NCBI GenBank assembly: GCA_022605425.2
Contig: CM061251.1
Coordinates: 713,001 to 777,000 of the forward strand
Direction of reading: 5' to 3'
Origin: Hamiltosporidium tvaerminnensis
Taxonomy: Eukaryota > Microsporidia > Dubosqiidae
DNA length: 64,000 bases
A program made the translations under genes and the position numbers. Below the pieces are notes generated by a model, which saw nothing but the letters and a program-made list of their open reading frames with translations, was not told where the DNA came from and searched no databases. How positions within the stretch are numbered: position 1 is the stretch's first letter; each line of letters begins with the position of its first letter. Shown here piece by piece: positions 8,779 through 61,241 of the stretch.

Positions 8779-10532
8779 CTCCCTCTGTCCGGAAATATGG
8801 TATACATTCCAAAAAAACCGTAGATTATCGTGAATATAAAAAATAAATAGGCAACCGTCATGACATTGTCATAGTAAATATTCATGACAATATAACCTAA
8901 AATTTTTGACTTTAGTAATATCATTCTTAGTTAAAAAGTTACCGTTCAAACATCAGTGTTTCTTAAGGTAAAAAAAATTAGTGCCGCTGCAAGACGAATA
9001 TGGAAAATGTGGAAGAAAATTTGTTAAATTCAGAAAAAAGAGATTCAAAATATAAACAGATAACTAAAGAACAACGTCAAGGTATTTTAGAAAAATTATT
9101 ACAGCAGATGAAGGAGAATAAGTTAAAACACGGTGCCATCAACGAAGTTTCTTTTGCCTTTCAAGTTTCCCGGCTAACCGTTAGCAGAATTTGGCATGCA
9201 GCACAAACTCAATACAGAAAAGGCAAGATATGTGCCGATGTTTCTTCAAAAAAGAAAAAAAGATGCGGAAGAAAACCTAAAGAATATTCGAAAAATTTAG
9301 CGCAAATAAGGAATACACCATTAAATCGTCGAGGAACGCTCCGCAGTCTTTCCGTTGCAATTGTTATTCCAAAATCAACTTTGTTTGATATATTCAAGTC
9401 GGGAAAGTATATCAAGAGAATATCTTCTACAGTTAAACCAACTTTAACAGATAAAAATAAAATGGACAGATTGAAATTTTGCTTGTCTAAAGTAAATCTT
9501 GCTAATAATGGAGATTTGCTTTTTGATGATTTGTACGACTACGTTCACATCGATAAAAAGTGGTTTTATCTAACTAAAGTTAAGCGCTCTTATTACTTAA
9601 TGTTAAACGAAGAAAACCCGGAGAGAAACTGCAAAAGTAAGCGATTTATTACGAAAATAATGTTCATGGCTGCAGTAGCTCGACCACGCTATGATGCACA
9701 TAGAAAGCTTTATTTTGATGGGAAAATTGGAATATGGCCATTTGTTTATCAAGCACCAGCTCAAAGAAATTCTAAGAATAGGGCTAAAGGGACAATGATA
9801 ACAAAAAATGTGGAATCTGTTACAGCAGTACATTGCAAAAACATGATCATTGATAATGTAATTCCCGCAATTAAATCTAAATTTCCGCCAGCATACAAAA
9901 AGAAAATAATTTACATACAACAAGACAATGCAAAACCCCATTTTTCTGATAATGATGCAGATATTGTCGCTCTTGGTTCTGCTGATGACTGGAATATTAA
10001 ATTTAAGGCGCAACCGGCAAATAGCCCCGATTTAAATGTTCTCGATTTAGGTATTTTCAACTCCATATAATCGCTGCAACATGAAACTTCGCCACACACA
10101 ATAAACGAATTAATAAATTGTGTTCAAGATGCATTTCATCAATTTGAAGTGAATACTCTCGATAAAATTTTTACAAAATTGCAAGCATGTATAGAGTCAA
10201 TTATGTTAGCAGATAGAGGAAATAGCTATAAAATACCTTATTTAAGTAAAGGAAAACTTCGTCGCGAAGGTCGACTGCTAGAAAAATATGTATGTTCGAA
10301 AGAATCATAGGTTAAAGCCAAATCAAATTTCGAGTGAACTTATTAATTTTAATATTTATTTTTTTAAATTTTATAATATTTACATTAATATTTATTAAAA
10401 TGTTCAAATAAAGGTAATATAATAAACTTGTCACATACATTTTTTGATTTATTTTATTTTTTCGCAAATGTATACCATATTTCCGGACAAAAAAATCGCT
10501 AAAATGTATACCATATTTCCGGACAGAGGGAG
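8779..10532 (+). mobile_element. mariner-like element, plant-type DD39D
   Basis: The two ends are perfect 30-bp inverted repeats (8779-8808 and 10503-10532), starting CTCCCTCTGTCCGGAAATAT inward. TA dinucleotides flank both sides (8777-8778 and 10533-10534), the target duplication of Tc1/mariner elements. A third copy of the inner part of the repeat lies just inside the right end (about 10466-10489, same orientation as the right repeat). Length is 1,754 bp with one transposase gene. The CTCCCTC end is typical of plant mariner-like and Stowaway elements. Perfect ends and a single disabling stop suggest recent activity. Confidence 0.93.
9000..10310 (+). pseudogene. mariner DD39D transposase with one internal stop
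   Basis: Open from 9000 to a TAA at 10068-10070, then open again in the same frame to TAG at 10308-10310, giving 436 codons. An N-terminal helix-turn-helix region (about residues 20-70: ITKEQRQGILEKLL, FQVSRLTVSRIW) and a GRKPKEY basic patch precede the catalytic domain. Catalytic acidic residues are D185 (HIDKKWFY), D309 (QQDNAKPH) and D349 (NVLDLG); the last two have 39 residues between them, defining DD39D. Family members usually read HIDEKWF; here E is K. The stop replaces a Gln in the block usually read as AIQSLQ, one C-to-T change (CAA to TAA). The truncated 356-aa product keeps the whole triad but loses the C-terminal tail. Confidence 0.9.
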
Positions 10533-24859: not shown

Positions 24860-26299
24860 TTAATCATATAAAATCGTAAGTATCATCCTAACTCCTGACA
24901 AACATAAGTCCCCCAGTAATTTTGTATGTATTTTAGCAATATTCTCATCATCAGAAGGCGTAGTATCATCAAACATCAAAACAACGTTTATAATATATTT
25001 TATGTATTCCTCATTTTCAAGAAATTTTTCAAGAAGTTGACTTTTAAATAAATCAAAAATCATTTTAAAATTCGAGCTGGCCTTATTTCCTTCTGATTTT
25101 ATCAAAATATATTTTTTCTTGCAAGCTTTAAGAAATTCTTTGATTAAATTTAATAGTTCGCTTGTAGTTTTCTTTTCTGTCTCAATCATAAAAATTTTGA
25201 TTCGATTTAAAAAAGCACTCGGTAAATTTAATATAAAGGGATGATTTAAAATCTTATCAATGTCTTTCAAGTTATCTATTGCATCATCTAAATATTTTAT
25301 AATAGAACCACTCTGATTTAAAACAGCATCTATGATTTTATCAATAAGAATCCATATAATACCTTCAAACTCTTTCGAAATCTTTTTTACATCTATTTCT
25401 TGATCTTTAACAGTTTCAAAGAAATCTTTTAGCATTTTTTTAAAGTTTTCCGAATCAGATATATATTTTGTTATTAATTGATCAATATTTGGGCGAGCTA
25501 ATGTGTCAGATACATTCTTTATTATTTCTAGTACCTCATTTTTACCAAAGGAATTGCAAGAAATAAAATTTATTGTATCAATAATGTTTTTTTTATCAAA
25601 TATATTGGCTTTTCCAAGCAAAAAAATCATGAAGTCCATAGATTCCTTCTTACTTTTAAAACTTATTTCTTCTACCTTTTTAGCCGAATCAGAACAATAA
25701 CTCATAGATACTTTTACAGAATTTTTTTTCATTTCAAACGTTTCATAAGAGCCTTCCCCATTCTTGGTGAATCCTTCTAATAAAGAAATTGTTTTGTTAA
25801 TAAAATTAAACTCAGATAAACCACCTGAAAGAAATATTCCAAGCTTAGTTAAAATAGATGGATCATAGCACTTCCAAAACTTTTTTAGGCGATCAATTGA
25901 AAACAAATACGGGAACATAACAATATTATAAATTTTTGCAACCAAGTCATCAACGTTAACACTTTCTAATATTTTCTTTTGGTTTTCTTTGTTTTTATCG
26001 AGAAAAATTTTACAGCACTTAAATAAGTCATCAAAATGTTGGTAAGAAAAGCATACACTTATATCAATAGCGTTTTGCTCTTTTATGTGTATTATGCCTA
26101 TGTTATTGTTGGTATTAACCCATTTCCTCAATCTTTTACATTGTGAGGAAGCCGTAAATTCATTGAATTCATTGAGAAGCTTTCGTTTCATTTTTATACC
26201 AAGGAAAAGTGAAAGTGACACGATCACTAGCGCAATTGAACATATGAATACTCCAATACCAAATATAATTTTATTCTTTCTTGTAAACACCATACCCAT
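24860..26299 (-). CDS. Paralogous single-pass membrane protein, copy A
   Basis: The first true ATG is at 26299, giving 479 aa; the open frame extends further upstream only by a TTG. The paralogue at 28925-30400 starts with the same MGM, which supports this choice. The N-terminus is MGMVFTRKNK followed by one transmembrane helix (IIFGIGVFICSIALVIVSLSLF) and a basic stop-transfer KMKRK. The rest is a helical, soluble domain of about 440 residues with conserved blocks shared with the paralogue: EFTASSxxKRLRK, the LSYQH block, FxxKxxISLL, ILTILYD at the C-terminus. No known domain is recognised. Topology (short inside tail, long body) suggests a membrane-anchored or exported protein. Upstream there is no CCC motif, but a GTAAATT-ATAAATATA-like block is shared with the paralogue. 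Confidence 0.75.
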   Translation of the reverse strand: MGMVFTRKNKIIFGIGVFICSIALVIVSLSLFLGIKMKRKLLNEFNEFTASSQCKRLRKWVNTNNNIGIIHIKEQNAIDISVCFSYQHFDDLFKCCKIFLDKNKENQKKILESVNVDDLVAKIYNIVMFPYLFSIDRLKKFWKCYDPSILTKLGIFLSGGLSEFNFINKTISLLEGFTKNGEGSYETFEMKKNSVKVSMSYCSDSAKKVEEISFKSKKESMDFMIFLLGKANIFDKKNIIDTINFISCNSFGKNEVLEIIKNVSDTLARPNIDQLITKYISDSENFKKMLKDFFETVKDQEIDVKKISKEFEGIIWILIDKIIDAVLNQSGSIIKYLDDAIDNLKDIDKILNHPFILNLPSAFLNRIKIFMIETEKKTTSELLNLIKEFLKACKKKYILIKSEGNKASSNFKMIFDLFKSQLLEKFLENEEYIKYIINVVLMFDDTTPSDDENIAKIHTKLLGDLCLSGVRMILTILYD

Positions 26300-28019
26300 C
26301 GTATTAAAAATGCTATTTATATTTATATAATTTACCCATTTAGGTACATTCAAACGAATTTAATTTATTTTTTTTAATATTTATTTTTATCATTAAAATA
26401 TTTTCGTTTTCGCCGATAAATTAAAAAAAATATTTAATCATTAATGTTTTATTTGACCAATTTCTTTTATATCAGAATAACATGTTTTTAATCTATAAAA
26501 TGTTTGATCGGCTGATTAAAATAAAAATGTTGTTGTAGAATATCTGGATCTATGGAATATAAGCACATAATATGGGTCTCTATTTCTATAATATTACAAA
26601 ATATTGTCTTATTCCAACCGATAAAAAATATTTTTGTTTTATTTTTATCCGGTATTATTTTTTATCTACTTAGTCAATTCAATACATTGTTAAAAAAAAC
26701 TATATATTTACATATTTTCTCAGATATTTTTATATATAATAAGGTACTTCTATAGATTAAACAAAAATATATATTTAAAAGACGAAAATAATATAGGCTA
26801 CAATTTCTATACTTCAAATACAAATTTTTCTTGCGTAATCAAAATGCGTAATTATATATTTAAAACCATAGCTATATATCTTGCATTTTGGAAAGATATA
26901 TAGAAAGTTTCTATATCCTATAAGCAATTTTATTGAATTTATTTCCACAATATTGCTTTTAATTCAATAAAATGTGGTAAATTCTATCAAAAAATTTCCA
27001 ATTCCATTTTGTCTAACTTTATCAATTGAATATTCAATAAAACGTTTTAATCAAACTAGACGTGAGCTCGTAGAATCGAACTTTCTTTTGCATTCATAAG
27101 AAAAACTTTCCAGAAATAATCTTAAACCAAATTATCTGAGCAAAGTTTCTCAACATTTTCAATGAAAATTTCTTTATATCGTCTAATATGTTTCTCGTAG
27201 GTTATTTTTAGTCTTTGATTTGCAAATTATTGCCCGCTTTGAGAAATTTACCAATAAAAACTTAAGCTTTATTAACTTGCCATATTTCTTCTTCTTTTAT
27301 ATTTACTTTCATTTCTTGCTAACTTCAGCTAGCGTTTTAATTTAGTCTTTTCTTTTTCCACCTATTTTCATTCAATTCTGTGTTTTTCTCGAAAAAATTT
27401 ATATTTGTGATTTTTGTATGAAAAAATCGTGCTTTTTAACAATATGTTGCATTGGTTATTCATTATATCAATTGTCAATTATTTTAATTAAAAATCCTTT
27501 GATTTAATCAAGTATAAAGTTCCACGAAGCTATTCAAGCAAAATTACTCTTTGGAATTATTATTGACAATTTGAATGAATTACCAGAAGCTTGTAAAAGC
27601 AGCAATCCTATCATACAATATTTTATGCAAATGTATATTCTTAGAAAAGAACGCTCAACAAAGTGATGTATTTTTTAAAAAATGAAAACGTTAGAAAAAT
27701 TAAAAAAATAAATTTATTACTTTATTCTTGATAAATAATACTATTTAGAAAAAAATTATGGAAATTTAGTATTGAAGATTTTGTTTAAAAAAATAGATTT
27801 TTTTAGTTTTTTAAGTTCAGTTCTACTCAGTATTATTGGTTAGGTAAGACTTATGGACAAATAGAAATAGACATGTCTTAATTGTGCACTCTTGTTGGTT
27901 TCTATAGTCTTTTAACCAATTAAACATTTCTAGGTGAGTCGGCGTCGTCGTCGGAACATTTCTGAATTATATAAATGCTTCATTCTTCATAGCATACTCC
28001 TTTATATTTAAAAATATCC
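26300..28019. other. Spacer between repeats and paralogue A
   Basis: A 67-codon hydrophobic plus-strand frame (26552-26755, MEYKHIIW...) lies divergent to paralogue A but has no CCC motif or recognisable family. Otherwise AT-rich with nothing supported. Confidence 0.35.
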
Positions 28020-28924: not shown

Positions 28925-30400
28925 TTAATCGTATAATATAGTCAAAATAACCTTAAAAAGCGATAAACACATTTCATCTCGTAATTTTATGTGCATTTTA
29001 AAAAGTAAATCATCGTCAGAACTAAAGTTCTCTAACATAACAACAATGTTTTTTAAATATTCTATCATTTCTTCATTTTCAAGGAATATTCCAATGAATT
29101 TGCTTTTAAAAAATTTAACGAACGTTTTAAAATCCTGATTGTTGTTCATTGTATTGATTTGAATATTTTTTTCGTTTATATTTTCTAGAAGTACTTTAAA
29201 TAACTTCAATAGCTTGATCGTAGTGTTTTTTTCGGTTTCAAAAATGAAAATTTTTATTTGCCTTAATATTTGTGAGGATATATCAAGTCTTTCTATTTCA
29301 TTAAAAAATTTGTTGAAACTTTCTATGGCATTTTCTGGTTCATTTATCCACTCCATAACGTCTTCTTTGTTTTCTAGATAAATATTAAGCAATTTTCTAG
29401 CAAACACCCAAGAAAATCTTTCGAATTCGTTTAAAATCCATTTTAAATCATTTTCTTCCTTTCTAAATTCTTGCAAAAATTCTGAAATCATTTTCTTAGG
29501 TTCTTCTGTAGCAGGAATATATCGACTAACTAACTTATCAATATCGGGGATAAATAGTATACCAAGAAAATTCTCTAATATATCTAGTAGAAAACCTTTC
29601 AATAAAATATCTGAAGAAATTTTTGTCAATGTATCATAAATATTGTTTAAATCAAATATGTTGGCTTTACTTAAGAGGAAGATAACAAAATCAGTTGTGT
29701 TTTTGCTTTTTAAACTGATTTTCTCCGTTTTTTCATATAAAAATTCTGCGTTCGTTATCATATCTGCAATTTTATGAATCTTTGATAATACATTAACAGA
29801 ATTATCTTTAATTTCAATCGTAATATAACCGAATTCGCCTTCATTTCTGCTCATTTCTTGCAATAATGAAATTATTTTGTCAATAAAATTGAATTCGGAT
29901 GCACCTCGTATGAGAACTAGTCCAAATTTTGTTAAAATATCAGGTTTATATTTCTTCCAAAAAATATTCAGTTTCTCAACAGACATCAAATAAGGAAGGA
30001 AAACAACATTATAAGATTTAGTCATTATATCATCTATTGTGTAACCTTCAAGTAATTTTTCCTTATTTTCATCATTACCGTATAAAAAAAGCTCACTGCA
30101 CTTAAATAGCTCATTGGCATGTTGATAAGAAAGACAAGGACTTATACTAAGCTTTCCTTCTTCTTTAATATTAAAAATACCTATATTTTTATTCCTATCA
30201 ATCAATTTCCTCAATCTTTTGGCGTAAGAAGAAGCAGTAAATTCATTAAATTCGTTAAACTGTTTTACTTCTTTTGAAAGTTTTTTCTTCGCCTTTACAC
30301 CACAAAAAAGTGAAATAGATCCAATTATCACAACAATGGTACCAATTAAGATCCCCAAACCAACTATTATTTTTTTCGTTTTTAAAATTTCCATACCCAT
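28925..30400 (-). CDS. Paralogous single-pass membrane protein, copy B
   Basis: 491 aa, starting MGMEILKTKK, then a transmembrane helix (IIVGLGILIGTIVVIIGSISLF) and basic KAKKK. It aligns end to end with copy A: KQFNEFNEFTASS-YAKRLRK, NIGIFNIKEEG, CLSYQHANELFKCSELFL, LPYLMSVEKLNIFWKKY, EFNFIDKIISLLQ, IDKLVSRYI, KIFIFETEKNTTIKLLKL, and the same VILTILYD end. Similarity is moderate, so the duplication is old or the genes evolve fast. Same strand, 2.6 kb apart, separated by repeat copy 2. Function unknown. Confidence 0.78.
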   Translation of the reverse strand: MGMEILKTKKIIVGLGILIGTIVVIIGSISLFCGVKAKKKLSKEVKQFNEFNEFTASSYAKRLRKLIDRNKNIGIFNIKEEGKLSISPCLSYQHANELFKCSELFLYGNDENKEKLLEGYTIDDIMTKSYNVVFLPYLMSVEKLNIFWKKYKPDILTKFGLVLIRGASEFNFIDKIISLLQEMSRNEGEFGYITIEIKDNSVNVLSKIHKIADMITNAEFLYEKTEKISLKSKNTTDFVIFLLSKANIFDLNNIYDTLTKISSDILLKGFLLDILENFLGILFIPDIDKLVSRYIPATEEPKKMISEFLQEFRKEENDLKWILNEFERFSWVFARKLLNIYLENKEDVMEWINEPENAIESFNKFFNEIERLDISSQILRQIKIFIFETEKNTTIKLLKLFKVLLENINEKNIQINTMNNNQDFKTFVKFFKSKFIGIFLENEEMIEYLKNIVVMLENFSSDDDLLFKMHIKLRDEMCLSLFKVILTILYD

Positions 30401-51188: not shown

Positions 51189-53214
51189 TATAGATATTTA
51201 AATTTAAAGCATATTTTGGAATTGTAAAGTATTTGATACATGAATAAAACTTTATAAAAAAAACATTTGTTTACATTTTTTTCTTTTGATTTTTAGAATT
51301 TTTATATTTGAATTATCGATTAATATTAAAAGAAATACATTGAATCCATTCGAATATTTTATTGGTAAAATTGAGATGTTTTTAATCTAATTTCAATTTG
51401 CGTTTATTTATAGTATTATTGGTAATACTCACTTGAATGTGGTTTTTAACCCGATATAAAGTAAAAAAATAATAGATGAAAATAATACGTTAAATATTTT
51501 ATTAAGAATCATAAAAGGTATGTTTCTTATTTCTTTTCCTCTGAAGTAAGGGGTAAAAATTACTCAAGAACGCTTTTCAAGGATTCATTAACCTTAAAGG
51601 CATTCCAACCTCTTTCATTTGGTCTCTTTATAGTCCAGGCTTATCACCATAAAAATATATGCTCGAAGGTAATGTTCCTAAAATTTCCTCAACGAATTCG
51701 TAGGCTTTTCATTCTTTTTAGAGACAAATTCCTCCTCAGACTTCTTAACCATCTGAGGAATTACAAAGTCAAAGCAGTCGAATAAATTCATGTATATCAA
51801 AACAATTTTAGCCCAGTGTTTTAGGGCATCGGTAAAACATATTTTTTTGTAAGGTATTTTTCGCAAAAAAAAATTTAAACTCATCTTTAAATAAATAATG
51901 ACTATTTACAGTCTGAAACTCGGTCTTATAGTTTTTTTTTAAAAGTTCTTTGTACAATATCTTTACATCGACTTTGTGGTAATCTATATTTTCCTCTAAA
52001 CTTTTGATATAAAAAATCTTCCCTTAGTTTGCCTATATCATCCTGTGTTTGGCTTAAGCCATTTTTTTCAAGCTCTTTTTTTATAAATTTTGTAGGAAAA
52101 AGTGTATTATCCATATCGAATACTAATACCTTTTCTTTGTAATCTATCGATGCAATTCTTGTATTAGAAAGAGATACATATGTCGTTTCGTCAGGAAAAG
52201 CTCCTAAATATACGAAATTGCTGCTAATCTTTTCTAAATAATTAAAAATGTTTTCAAACTTATCAAATGGTTCTGTTTATACTTAACTTAATAATTTTTT
52301 GTAGTGATTTTCAAAATATGCAAGACATTTCTTAGAAAAATCCGTAAAAACGATTTCTTTTGCTTTCTCATTCATATATTTTAAACTTTGGTCCATCATT
52401 TCTGACAAATTGGTTACAAAGTGTTCCTCGTGAAACGCCTTGTCAAAACCGGATATATAATACTTTTGAAAAACAATCTGGAACAATTCTGATATCCTTG
52501 AGTGAAACCCGTATGCTTGGTTTCAAATTTCCCAATCTATATCCATATTATATATATATTTGAGAATTTTATTATCCACACCATTAGCCTCCAAATTTTT
52601 TCGTCTAAGATTCGTTTCAACGGTATCTTGTGTTTCATTATCAAACTTAACTCTGTTTCAGTATTCCCAAACAAGAAATCATAAATGTATAACTCTTTTA
52701 TATTTTTATTCGGATTGGATTGTTCTTCTGATTTAATTCACATTTCGTAACTATATCAGTGTTAACGGATATCACGATATTATTTAAATCGTTTGCAATA
52801 ATCTCTTTGAATCTTCACTACAGCTTTCACAGATCTCTATTTTCCTTTTAAAATCATCAGACAAGTGTTGAGAGACATATGAATCAAAATTAATAAGAAA
52901 TTCATCTTTGTCATCTAAGTTTTTAACTGTTTGGCTGCTAAGCAATTATTGCAAGAACGCACGAAAACTGCGGGACTTATTTTCAATTGATGTTGTCAAT
53001 TTTTTTTTTTTATATATATATTGTTTCGCACAACTACAATGTAACAAGTGTTATTGATAACATAGAAAAACAAGTGGTCGTTAAAAATTAAAATTTATAA
53101 AAAGATAACTTAAAGTTTATTGATTTTCTCTTATGATCAGCACGTGAATCAATGATTTCGAATGATTCCGGCGTAGGCACTAGGTGATACATGATAACAA
53201 TTACTATCGATAAT

Positions 53215-53263
53215 ACACTAGGTAGTATCACATAATAAATTATTTTGTGATACTACCTAGTGT
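53215..53263. repeat. 18-bp perfect hairpin in piggyBac 3' region
   Basis: Arms acactaggtagtatcaca (53215-53232) and its exact complement (53246-53263) with a 13-nt loop. It lies just downstream of the transposase end and could act in termination or as a transposase-binding subterminal site. Confidence 0.75.
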
Positions 53264-53325
53264 TTTTCCGAACTTAAAGGATCGTTTTCATGAGAGTGAA
53301 AAATTCTGACTCTTACTTAAAAAAT

Positions 53326-55004
53326 TTATGTATTACAACTATGTTTTGCCGCACAAATAGCGTGAAGGCCTTTTTTACAACAAGCGCAAATAAAGTGGAA
53401 TCGCTTGATCCCGCTCCTTCTGTTGCTACACACCGCACATTGTCGTAAGTTACGACCCGGTAATTTTTCAAGCGCAAATTTATTAGTTGATGAAGATGGT
53501 TGTGTTGAAACGCTATTTTTATGGTACATCTACTCCTTTTCGATGTCGTCAATAATTTTCGATGTAAATTTGAGCCGGTTCATTTTTTTTTCAGTAGTGT
53601 TTGAAACATATAAAATATATGAGTTCAGCACCATTCTTCCAAATACGTCGAATACTACTTTCTTCCAATACTTGAGGGTTCTTCGCTCGTCTAAACACAC
53701 GTATAGCATTTTGTCGCACTCGTCCACACCACCCATGTATTTATTGTAGTCATGAATCATGCTTGGTTTCATCTTTTCGTATTCAAAATTCCCTTTCTTT
53801 TTCTTGATCGTCACACTATTAGTATCCGAATTTGATGAAATCAGTATGACTGGGTTTGGTTTGGACTTTTTGTCGCTGAAAGAGCACATCAATACATTTT
53901 CATGTGTCATGTATTTCGCTTCTCCTACGATTGCTTTCTTAGCTTCTGGAGGAATCTCTTTTCTGTTAGTCTAATTGTTCCAGTTAGATAGGTATTTTGT
54001 TTCAAAAGGGCTTTGGCCAAGCGTAAGCTTGTGTAAAAATTATCTGTAAACAGATGATAGCCCTTGAACAGATAATTGCCAGTTGAAAGCAATTTTCGCG
54101 CAACCGTAAATCCAAGGCCATATTTTTGTACTAAATCTCTGTCATCTGTATTTTTAGCACCTTTGTAGCAAAAAAAACCCAAGCAATATTTAGAAATCGA
54201 GTCGCACAACATCCAAAATTTTTTCCCCTATTTATGGTGTTTTTTGTTTGGGATGTATTGTTTTATGGCAGAATGACAGTGAGTACCAACTAACGACTCG
54301 TCGATAGATAATTGTTGATTTGGTATATAATTCCGCTGAAATACAGTATTTGCATGTTTGACAAGCATATCAAATCTGCCGCATGGGTCATAATTCGGAT
54401 GTCCTGGTTCAAATAATGACGTATTGTCAATCAAGTGAAAAAACTTCAAAATCAGTTGAAACCTATCCCTTGAAAACATTGTCCTAAACCATGGTAATTG
54501 CCGGGAACCTGTTGCCCAATAACTATCAATTGTTGGCCTTCTCGTAATCCCCATTTCGAGTAAGACTGCAATAAAGGCTTTGATTTCGTATATCGTTGTC
54601 GGCATCCACTTTTTTGCTCGAGAATTATTCAAAACAGTGTGCGAGGCAAAAAACTGGGTAGCATATCGATTTGTTTCCCTTACAATGGTTTCAAGGAGTG
54701 ATGTGGTAAAAGATAAATTGAAATATGTTACCGGTGAAGCATCGGGGGGAGGCGCACATCTAGGTCCAGGAGTCTCGAAAAAATTATTTGTTGCTTTGGA
54801 AAACACATTAGTCGGAGGAATATTCGTAAAAGTTGGTGTTTCCTCTGCTTCTGAAGATGAGATAGAAGACTCACTTTCAATCCTCAGTCTTTTTCTTCGA
54901 TGAGTTATAATAATGCTATCATCACTACTTGTGTCACCACCAATTTCACCATCCTCAGAATCGCTAGCAATCGAAACAACGTCCGAAATAATAGTCCGTG
55001 ACAT
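53326..55004 (-). pseudogene. piggyBac transposase with three lesions
   Basis: Begins MSRTIISDVVSIASDSEDG with a Ser/Asp-rich acidic head, then the DDE_Tnp_1_7 domain. The first catalytic Asp sits in LSIDESLVGTH, the second in LFTDNFYTSLRLAKALL, the third in YNKYMGGVDECDKM, so all three remain. The C-terminus is a cysteine-rich RING-like end (CAVCSNRRSG, FICACCKKGLHAICAAKH). Lesions: a TAG at 54228-54230 replacing the Trp usually found in the HKWG block, a frameshift near 53965-53970, and a TAG at 53530-53532 just before the Cys-rich end. Both sides of each TAG stay in the same frame. Recent inactivation. Confidence 0.9.
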
Positions 55005-55601
55005 GGTTATATTTTTTAAATAATATATAAAAACGGTAAAAAGTTAGTTTAGAATACACTCGTGTTACAAAGTACTCGCGAGGTCAGACTACGTTCAATT
55101 CCACGGAGCAAAAAGACACACTGTGACTGGCAGCGCGAAAGCGCTGCGTCGCTGTTTTCGAGACAAATGAACGAAGCGCATTCGCGCCGCGAGCAGTCAA
55201 ACGGTTAAAATATGTATTAATAATATCTTTAAATTCGCAAAAAACCGAATAGATGATCCGTGTTTTAAAATTAAAAGCCATAAAAAATACTCATCTTTTT
55301 TGAAATTTCTTTAAAACATAGAATTTCACTTTCGTTTGGTGTGATATGCATCATATTATTTTGCAAGGCCTTAATATATTATTGTAAAGCAAAACGATTA
55401 ACTTATTTTGAAATATGTGTTTTAAATATTGGTTCTTCTATGCTACTCGAAAGACTCTTTGATTTAATAGAATTCACAAAAAAAACAGCAACGTTATAGC
55501 AATCGGATTTGATCGCAGTTCAGATCTCTATTTTCGATTTTTATTACTTCAGAATCTTCTTTGGTACAAACAACAAAAAATATCCAGAATAAAATGCGCA
55601 T

Positions 55602-59462: not shown

Positions 59463-61241
59463 TTATTCCAAGACATCTACCAATGATTCCCGTAAGACTT
59501 TAATTAATGATTCTTGAACTAAAAAGGCATTCCAACCTCTATTATTTGCCTCCACTATATTTTTAAGCATATTATCATAAAAATATATGTTTGAGGGCGA
59601 TGTTCCTAAAAAATTTTCAACAAATTCGTAGGCTTGATATTTTGGCTTTAAAATTGTTGAGTCTATGTATGCGATCTCTCTATGAACCACATGGTCAAAG
59701 CAATCAACTAAATTCATTTGTTTTAAAATATACTCGGCATGATATTGTGTTGCATTGGTAAAACATATTTTTTTAGCTTTCAAATGTTGTAGTTCTTGTT
59801 TAAATTCCTCTAAAAACGCTAGATGACTTTGAATTGAAAACAAAGATGAATTTTTTTCTTTGCAAAAAAAATTTCCGACAAGCTCTTTACATTTGCTTTC
59901 ATTGTACTCTTTCGTATTTTGAATAAATTTAATCATAAATGATTCTAATGGTTGGTCTGGATCTGTATAGTTAAAGCCATATTCGTATTCATTAAAATGC
60001 GCTTCAAATAATTTCGTAGGAAACAGGGTATCATCGATATCGAATACCAATACTTTTTCATTGTAACACATGGATTTAATGGGATTTAAAGATAATAATA
60101 CGTAGAAGGGACCAACACGCAAGGCACTAGAATATTCAGGATTGCAGATAAATTCCTTCAAAAAACAAGAAATGTTTTCAAATTCCAAAAATGGTTTTGT
60201 TGTCACATAAGACAATAATTTTTCCAAGTGATCTTCTAAATATGTAAAACATATTTTATAATAACTGTTAAAAATCATTTTGTTTGCTTGCTCATCACGT
60301 TGTTTAAGAATCTGGCTATATGCGTTTAAAATATCATCGTTAAAGTATTCTTTACAAATATCTTCATGGTAACTAAATGCATAATAGTTTTGAAAAATGG
60401 AACTAAATAATTCGATCATATTTGAATAGAAAAAATGTGCAGCCGAACAGCTTTTTGCATGCTGTAATATCGAATTTTTAAATTCTGTAAACATCATATG
60501 TATGTGATTTTTACATGAAGTATTTTGATCATATTTAATCGTATATTGAGTTATATCTTTAATATTGAATTCAGAATTAGTATTGCTAAACAATCTTTCG
60601 TAAATATTAGATGTGTCATAATTAGAATCGAGATTTGATTTTTTTTGTCGTTTGCATTCGCTTGTTAAAATGGTGTTAATACCGCACGGTTTCAAAATAT
60701 CCTTTAAATCTTTCGAAACAATATCCTTTTCTTCTTCTTGGATTTCTAACATAGCATTATCCGTTTGATCATCATATGTATAGTATTCAGAGGTAAAAAA
60801 ATACATGTATTTTGCGAATTCGCTTTGTGTATTAAAATTTGGGAAGTATTCCTTAAAAATGTTTTTAAATTTAGAAAACACAACGTAAATAATGCGCGTT
60901 CGGAAAACAAGTAACCATTTAAAAGATTGACACTTTTTAAAATATGTTGTAAAGCATAGCATTTCAAGTTCGTTTGATGTCAAATTATTTTTCGTTAATT
61001 CCAAAGACTCAATATATTCTTTTAGAACTTCAAAATTAACTTGTTTTGAAATTGGTGTTCTTACAATTAATTCTGTTTTTATTGTTCCAAACGTTTTATG
61101 ATTAAGAAAATGAATAAATAGAGCTGAAACATGGAATACAATCGGATTCGATTTCATTTCAGTTATCATATTATAGTATGTCTGAATTTCAGAATTTTCT
61201 TTGGAAAACTTTACAAATATAATCCATAATAAAATTTGCAT
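59463..61241 (-). CDS. Secreted-looking HAD phosphatase, pyrimidine 5'-nucleotidase type
   Basis: 592 aa. The N-terminus MQILLWIIFVKFSKENSEI is a likely signal peptide. Residues about 20-390 form a helical Lys/Asn-rich domain I do not recognise. A HAD domain follows: motif I FDIDDTLFPTK (nucleophile about D402, acid about D404), motif II KKICFTNATQYH (Thr/Ser position about 492), a Lys in STILKPKYQAY, and motif IV region IYFYDNMLKNI (about 550). The FTNA, KPKY and D-N-KNI pattern is that of yeast Sdt1/Phm8 pyrimidine 5'-nucleotidases, which usually are ~280 aa and cytosolic. In those enzymes motif IV is commonly D-D; here it is Y-D, so activity needs testing. TATAAAAA lies 20 bp upstream; no CCC. 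Confidence 0.8.
   Translation of the reverse strand: MQILLWIIFVKFSKENSEIQTYYNMITEMKSNPIVFHVSALFIHFLNHKTFGTIKTELIVRTPISKQVNFEVLKEYIESLELTKNNLTSNELEMLCFTTYFKKCQSFKWLLVFRTRIIYVVFSKFKNIFKEYFPNFNTQSEFAKYMYFFTSEYYTYDDQTDNAMLEIQEEEKDIVSKDLKDILKPCGINTILTSECKRQKKSNLDSNYDTSNIYERLFSNTNSEFNIKDITQYTIKYDQNTSCKNHIHMMFTEFKNSILQHAKSCSAAHFFYSNMIELFSSIFQNYYAFSYHEDICKEYFNDDILNAYSQILKQRDEQANKMIFNSYYKICFTYLEDHLEKLLSYVTTKPFLEFENISCFLKEFICNPEYSSALRVGPFYVLLSLNPIKSMCYNEKVLVFDIDDTLFPTKLFEAHFNEYEYGFNYTDPDQPLESFMIKFIQNTKEYNESKCKELVGNFFCKEKNSSLFSIQSHLAFLEEFKQELQHLKAKKICFTNATQYHAEYILKQMNLVDCFDHVVHREIAYIDSTILKPKYQAYEFVENFLGTSPSNIYFYDNMLKNIVEANNRGWNAFLVQESLIKVLRESLVDVLE

What the first reader, a model, noticed from the sequence alone, without database searches (positions are those of the whole stretch)
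52923..55208. piggyBac insertion exactly inside a secreted-HAD paralogue, reconstructable to the base
TTAA duplications and matching 13-bp inverted ends bound the element. Joining the flanks at a single TTAA gives an uninterrupted minus-strand frame over the site (EFKDIINTYF then KNLDDKDEF), aligning with KFKNIFKEYF and NFNTQSEF of the intact gene at 59463-61241. The target was therefore in frame at this point when hit. Decay in the 3' part may be later.
Basis: seen in the sequence. Interest (0 to 1): 0.75.

Follow-up and report, generated by a model that had tools for sequence, protein, structure and literature searches.

The report
Jumping gene inside a decaying gene
A piggyBac jumping gene sits inside a duplicated phosphatase-like gene of a water-flea parasite, and a sister species has the same gene without it: a well-preserved example of a known kind of event.

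Summary
The insertion is real. A 2278-bp piggyBac element (52927-55204) lies between TTAA duplications (52923-52926, 55205-55208) in a minus-strand HAD-family gene related to the intact gene at 59463-61241. The genome matches the Hamiltosporidium tvaerminnensis assembly and holds 10 full copies, 4 short internal-deletion derivatives and 1 old relative. A 488-aa H. magnivora protein (P0003), 89-90% identical to the left flank, reads across the exact site, so the sister species has it empty. Flanks were compared apart, never joined; the codon boundary falls at the same point in both TTAA copies.

Corrections: the ends agree at 11 of 13 bases. Local frame does not show that the gene was intact when hit: damage lies on both sides and is denser than in the element (7-9 frameshifts in 1413 bp of left flank against 3 private indels in 2278 bp), so much decay probably came first (P 0.01-0.11 by method). 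'Secreted' was not testable with a predictor. The transposase groups with bee and wasp piggyBac, a pattern already in print for microsporidia (PMC4202319). Good example, ordinary kind.

The parts
52923..52926 (.). TTAA target-site duplication, left copy
52927..52939 (+). left inverted end, CTGTTTGGCTGCT, with a change at position 2 not seen in the other full copies
52927..55204 (-). piggyBac element, 2278 bp, one of 10 full copies in the genome
53207..53271 (.). hairpin inside the element downstream of the transposase frame (32-nt arms, 88% complementary); the reverse-strand self-match of this stretch is seen in the other 9 full copies
53326..55004 (-). broken piggyBac transposase gene (DDE_Tnp_1_7); pieces 54228-55004 (258 aa) and 53530-53910 (126 aa) match Pfam; 1 frame-changing indel, 1 in-frame indel and 2 stops against the open copy L008
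   Evidence: the lower end is taken from the frame positions
55192..55204 (-). right inverted end, CCGTTTGACTGCT
55205..55208 (.). TTAA target-site duplication, right copy
51512..52922 (-). 3' part of the interrupted HAD-family gene (7-9 frameshifts, 3 stops against P0003)
55209..55601 (-). 5' part of the interrupted HAD-family gene (4 frameshifts, 2 stops against the intact paralogue)
59463..61241 (-). intact tandem paralogue, 592 aa, HAD domain at residues 396-555

Best explanation
A piggyBac transposon inserted by its usual TTAA-duplicating route into a HAD-family gene of H. tvaerminnensis, after that lineage parted from H. magnivora, as one of about ten insertions of similar age. Shown: TTAA duplications, family ends, ten full copies, and a sister-species protein that reads across the site. 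Inferred: that the insertion followed the split (rather than being lost without trace in H. magnivora), that the target was probably already losing its frame when hit, and that the element came horizontally from an arthropod-like source. The transposase of this copy and the target gene are both broken now, so the copy most likely only marks the event.
For: TTAA on both sides here and in 8 of 10 full copies; 27 TTAA+end matches against 0 reversed; 10 full copies, star-like, 10-19 private substitutions each, 138 in all, against 12 columns with shared variants; DDE_Tnp_1_7 match E 1.6e-33; P0003 of H. magnivora continuous over residues 30|31, exactly at the site; same codon boundary within both TTAA copies; lesion density higher in the flanks than in the element.
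Against: 2 of 10 full copies lack TTAA on both sides: one has TTAT twice, one has no clear duplication. P0003 is a predicted protein; its DNA was not seen, it lacks most of the N-terminal part, and aligning its first 30 residues to the right flank needs 2 frameshifts in 88 bp, so the orthologue may be decaying too. The order 'decay first' has P up to 0.11 when scaled by homopolymer runs, and the flanks are richer in A+T than the element. No reads or other isolates were examined at this site.
Confidence: 0.9

Rival explanations
1. The gene was intact and in use when hit; the insertion killed it and all other lesions came afterwards (the strong form of the reader's ordering).
For: The frame is the same on both sides of TTAA; P0003 of the sister species is open for 488 aa over this region; the tandem paralogue is intact; the homopolymer-scaled test reaches P 0.11 in its mildest form.
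Against: 7-9 frameshifts in 1413 bp of left flank and 4 in 395 bp of right flank against 3 private indels in the 2278-bp element; P 0.043, 0.011 and 0.0098 by length.
Confidence: 0.3
2. The insertion is older than the species split and was lost by clean excision in H. magnivora.
For: piggyBac is known for excision that restores TTAA (recalled, not from a call).
Against: This copy has only 19 private substitutions in 2278 bp, while the left flank differs from P0003 at about 10% of residues and the intact paralogue from its H. magnivora counterpart at about 6%. These are different measures, so the comparison is rough.
Confidence: 0.06
3. Assembly artefact: the repeat was misplaced into this gene.
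For: Repeats are a known cause of misjoins; no reads were examined.
Against: Exact TTAA on both sides, changes private to this copy, flanks that match successive parts of the tandem paralogue, a position well inside contig 6; the published assembly used PacBio, Nanopore and Illumina reads (PMC10542269 section 10).
Confidence: 0.02

Closest known systems
piggyBac superfamily DNA transposons, with those of microsporidia in PMC4202319 (passages read; its table gives 3 piggyBac families for H. tvaerminnensis)
   Same: DDE_Tnp_1_7 transposase, TTAA duplication, short inverted ends; nearest named relatives are in Hymenoptera, as reported there for other microsporidian piggyBac
   Different: This family's transposase groups with P0050 (unnamed) and a bee, Hylaeus, next to a wasp, Mischocyttarus. 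Whether it is one of the 3 families of that paper was not tested.
MITE-like derivatives of piggyBac
   Same: 4 short copies in this genome keep both element ends, or one end where cut off, and share the same internal deletion
   Different: Few copies; only the TTAA and end features were checked
HAD hydrolases of the pyrimidine 5'-nucleotidase / SSM1 group
   Same: The C-terminal domain of the intact paralogue matches PF00702 above its cut-off and SSM1-type solved structures at E 3e-4; the H. magnivora proteins are named 'putative pyrimidine 5'-nucleotidase'
   Different: About 390 N-terminal residues without a Pfam match at E 0.001; TIGR01993 scores 64.6, below its cut-off of 142.9

Membership tests
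piggyBac superfamily | Transposase with DDE_Tnp_1_7 domain | tested here: met
   PF13843, E 1.6e-33 and 3.9e-8 in two pieces of this copy; the open 561-aa copy L008 finds 473 proteins at E <= 0.001, best 120 listed, all 120 with PF13843 precomputed
piggyBac superfamily | TTAA target-site duplication | tested here: met
   Here and in 8 of 10 full copies, and in 3 of 4 short copies on both sides; exceptions TTAT/TTAT (L007) and unclear (L002)
piggyBac superfamily | Short terminal inverted repeats | tested here: met
   11 of 13 bases in this copy, 12 of 13 in the common family ends
piggyBac superfamily | Precise excision and movement | not testable with these tools
   Needs an assay or several isolates
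HAD hydrolase superfamily | HAD domain with DxDxT-type motif | tested here: met
   Intact paralogue: PF00702 40.2 bits against cut-off 26.4, motif DIDDT
Pyrimidine 5'-nucleotidase (TIGR01993) | Score above the curated cut-off | tested here: not met
   64.6 bits for the paralogue and 39.6 for P0003, cut-off 142.9
Secreted proteins | Cleavable signal peptide | tested here: inconclusive
   Only hydropathy was computed: a short hydrophobic N-terminus, best 9-mer 2.63; no predictor on hand

The most novel reading that the evidence does not exclude
A piggyBac acquired from a bee- or wasp-like source spread in one burst through a Daphnia parasite; one copy is still open and may still jump, its insertions differ between isolates, and genes already decaying, such as this HAD paralogue, carry datable marks of the burst.
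Probability: 0.3. Interest if true: 0.45.

Novelty: new member of a known kind. Interest (0 to 1): 0.3.

Why it matters
It is a base-exact gene-disruption event in a large, repeat-rich microsporidian genome, with an intact tandem paralogue and an uninterrupted sister-species protein as controls. Such sites let one ask whether transposons kill genes or mostly land in genes that are already dying, which bears on how parasite genomes shrink and grow. The kind of event itself is well known.

Tried and rejected
Counting ends within the window was a weak test, so a genome-wide pattern with a reversed control was used. The protein search with the 258-aa transposase piece excludes full-length relatives by length, so it was repeated with an open copy from elsewhere in the genome. 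P0049, a fused protein of another H. tvaerminnensis record, looked like an insertion polymorphism, but its junction is not at an element end; left open. Other copies inside long open frames: among the 10 full copies no clear case was found by open-frame length alone; the longest edge-open stretches were 97 and 67 codons on opposite strands at L034, where only about 500 bp of each flank was held. Literature: Hamiltosporidium + piggyBac gave 2 papers; microsporidia + piggyBac + transposable element + horizontal gave 18; Hamiltosporidium + transposable element + pseudogene gave 0; a search on TTAT sites of piggyBac gave 1 paper, seen in the listing only and not on the point. A search for the divergence of the two species and passages of PMC9778854 gave no usable number. 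No DNA of H. magnivora or of other H. tvaerminnensis isolates at this site was looked at.

Full report
What the window is. The window lies at G000:C6:713001-777000 of a genome of 21,638,905 bases in 17 contigs. That matches the published H. tvaerminnensis assembly, 21.64 Mb in 17 contigs (PMC10542269; abstract and section 10 read). The intact gene at 59463-61241 is 94% identical to a H. magnivora protein, and 131 residues of a protein named H. tvaerminnensis match contig 16 at 99%. The species is therefore an inference, but a firm one. It is a microsporidian parasite of Daphnia (host as given in the table of PMC4202319).

Observation. TTAA stands at 52923-52926 and 55205-55208, with 2278 bp between. 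The two 13-bp ends agree at 11 of 13 positions; one difference is a change of this copy alone at position 2, the other a constant difference between the two ends of the family. The genome search gave 10 full copies, 4 short derivatives that share the same internal deletion (3 complete at 432-438 bp, 1 cut off) and 1 old relative at 73-74% identity. TTAA plus the end motif with at most 1 mismatch gives 27 places, against 0 for the reversed pattern. Of the 10 full copies 8 have TTAA on both sides, 1 has TTAT on both sides and 1 has no clear duplication.

Age. The copies form a star: 10-19 private substitutions each, 138 in all, against 12 columns with shared variants; pairwise distances are 1.0-1.8%. 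This copy has the most, 19, with 3 private indels. Of the 10 full copies one (L008, contig 3) keeps an open transposase of 561 aa. Against it this copy has 1 frame-changing indel, 1 in-frame indel and 2 stops in the coding stretch.

Target. The flanks were examined apart. Against the intact paralogue the right flank matches residues 1-133 and the left flank residues 135-583. In both TTAA copies the codon boundary falls after the second base, so the frame is the same on both sides; by chance alone this would happen once in three, so P0003 is the stronger evidence. A search with the intact paralogue returned 3 proteins, all named H. magnivora. One, P0003 (488 aa), is 89-90% identical to the left flank over 453 aligned residues and reads across the site without a break: residue 30 is the last on the right flank and 31 the first on the left. 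It is most likely the orthologue of the interrupted gene and shows the site empty in the sister species, at protein level. The genome search with the paralogue gave 18 matches, several being pieces of one gene, among them another broken member on contig 2 at 653469-655036.

Was the gene alive when hit? The left flank shows 7-9 frameshifts (by penalty) and 3 stops in 1413 bp against P0003; the right flank 4 frameshifts and 2 stops in 395 bp against the paralogue. The element has 3 private indels in 2278 bp. If all flank lesions were younger than the insertion, such an excess has P 0.043 (7 left), 0.011 (9 left) or 0.0098 (7 left + 4 right) by length, and 0.011-0.11 over nine combinations when scaled by homopolymer runs of at least 4, 5 or 6. 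The right-flank count is against a paralogue, not the orthologue, so it may include lesions older than the species split. This leans towards decay that began before the insertion and is not proof. Against it: P0003 is a predicted protein that lacks most of the N-terminal part and needs 2 frameshifts to align with the 88 bp before the site, and A+T-rich genes may gain indels faster than the element (GC 0.29 and 0.26 against 0.37).

Origin of the element. The open transposase has its best match in P0050, an unnamed protein (91%, full length); the best named one is of a wasp, Mischocyttarus mexicanus (79% over 86% of the query); the best 120 of 473 were listed. A partial bee protein, Hylaeus volcanicus, is 88% identical over 182 aa. 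In a tree of 35 rows the Hamiltosporidium protein groups with P0050 and Hylaeus (support 100/96; the Hylaeus row fills 40% of the columns), next to Mischocyttarus. The one other microsporidian row, a partial Vairimorpha apis protein, falls in another branch, which speaks against shared microsporidian inheritance but rests on one row. Horizontal exchange of piggyBac between microsporidia and insects is already in print (PMC4202319, passages read), and the table of that paper lists 3 piggyBac families in H. tvaerminnensis. PMC7313128 (passages read) repeats the point for Anncaliia.

What it does. Nothing active is claimed for this copy: transposase broken, one end changed, target gene broken on both sides. 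The mechanism of its arrival is the ordinary TTAA insertion of piggyBac (superfamily knowledge, recalled) and its traces are shown here.

Verdict. Reading 'in frame at this point' as 'intact target' is not supported. It is a tidy member of a known kind.

Noticed in passing
L007, G000:C13:636557-638847: A full copy of the same element has TTAT, not TTAA, on both sides: an unusual target site.
   Followed up: partly
L035, L036, L037, L038: Four short derivatives keep the outer 187 and about 246 bp with the same internal breakpoint (one is cut off), so a deleted form seems to have been moved several times.
   Followed up: partly
L040, G000:C16:241516-241908: P0049, of another H. tvaerminnensis record, fuses 131 residues of this gene to a transposase piece, while no element copy was found on contig 16 here; the junction is not at an element end, so it may be a chimera or a gene-model error.
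   Followed up: partly
L012 and L018, G000:C2:653469-655036: A second broken member of the HAD family, with stops inside the match.
   Followed up: no
L011 and L014, G000:C2:1623931-1625704: A further HAD paralogue is matched as two adjacent open frames of 484 and 159 codons, so it may also be frameshifted.
   Followed up: no
window 53207-53271: A near-palindromic hairpin with 32-nt arms inside the element, also present in the other full copies.
   Followed up: no
window 9000-10070: An open 356-aa frame with DUF7769 and a weak Tc3-type transposase match, probably a Tc1/mariner-like element.
   Followed up: no
window 24860-26353 and 28925-30400: Two long open frames that look alike with a hydrophobic N-terminal stretch (by eye); the first has no Pfam match, the second was not scanned.
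   Followed up: no
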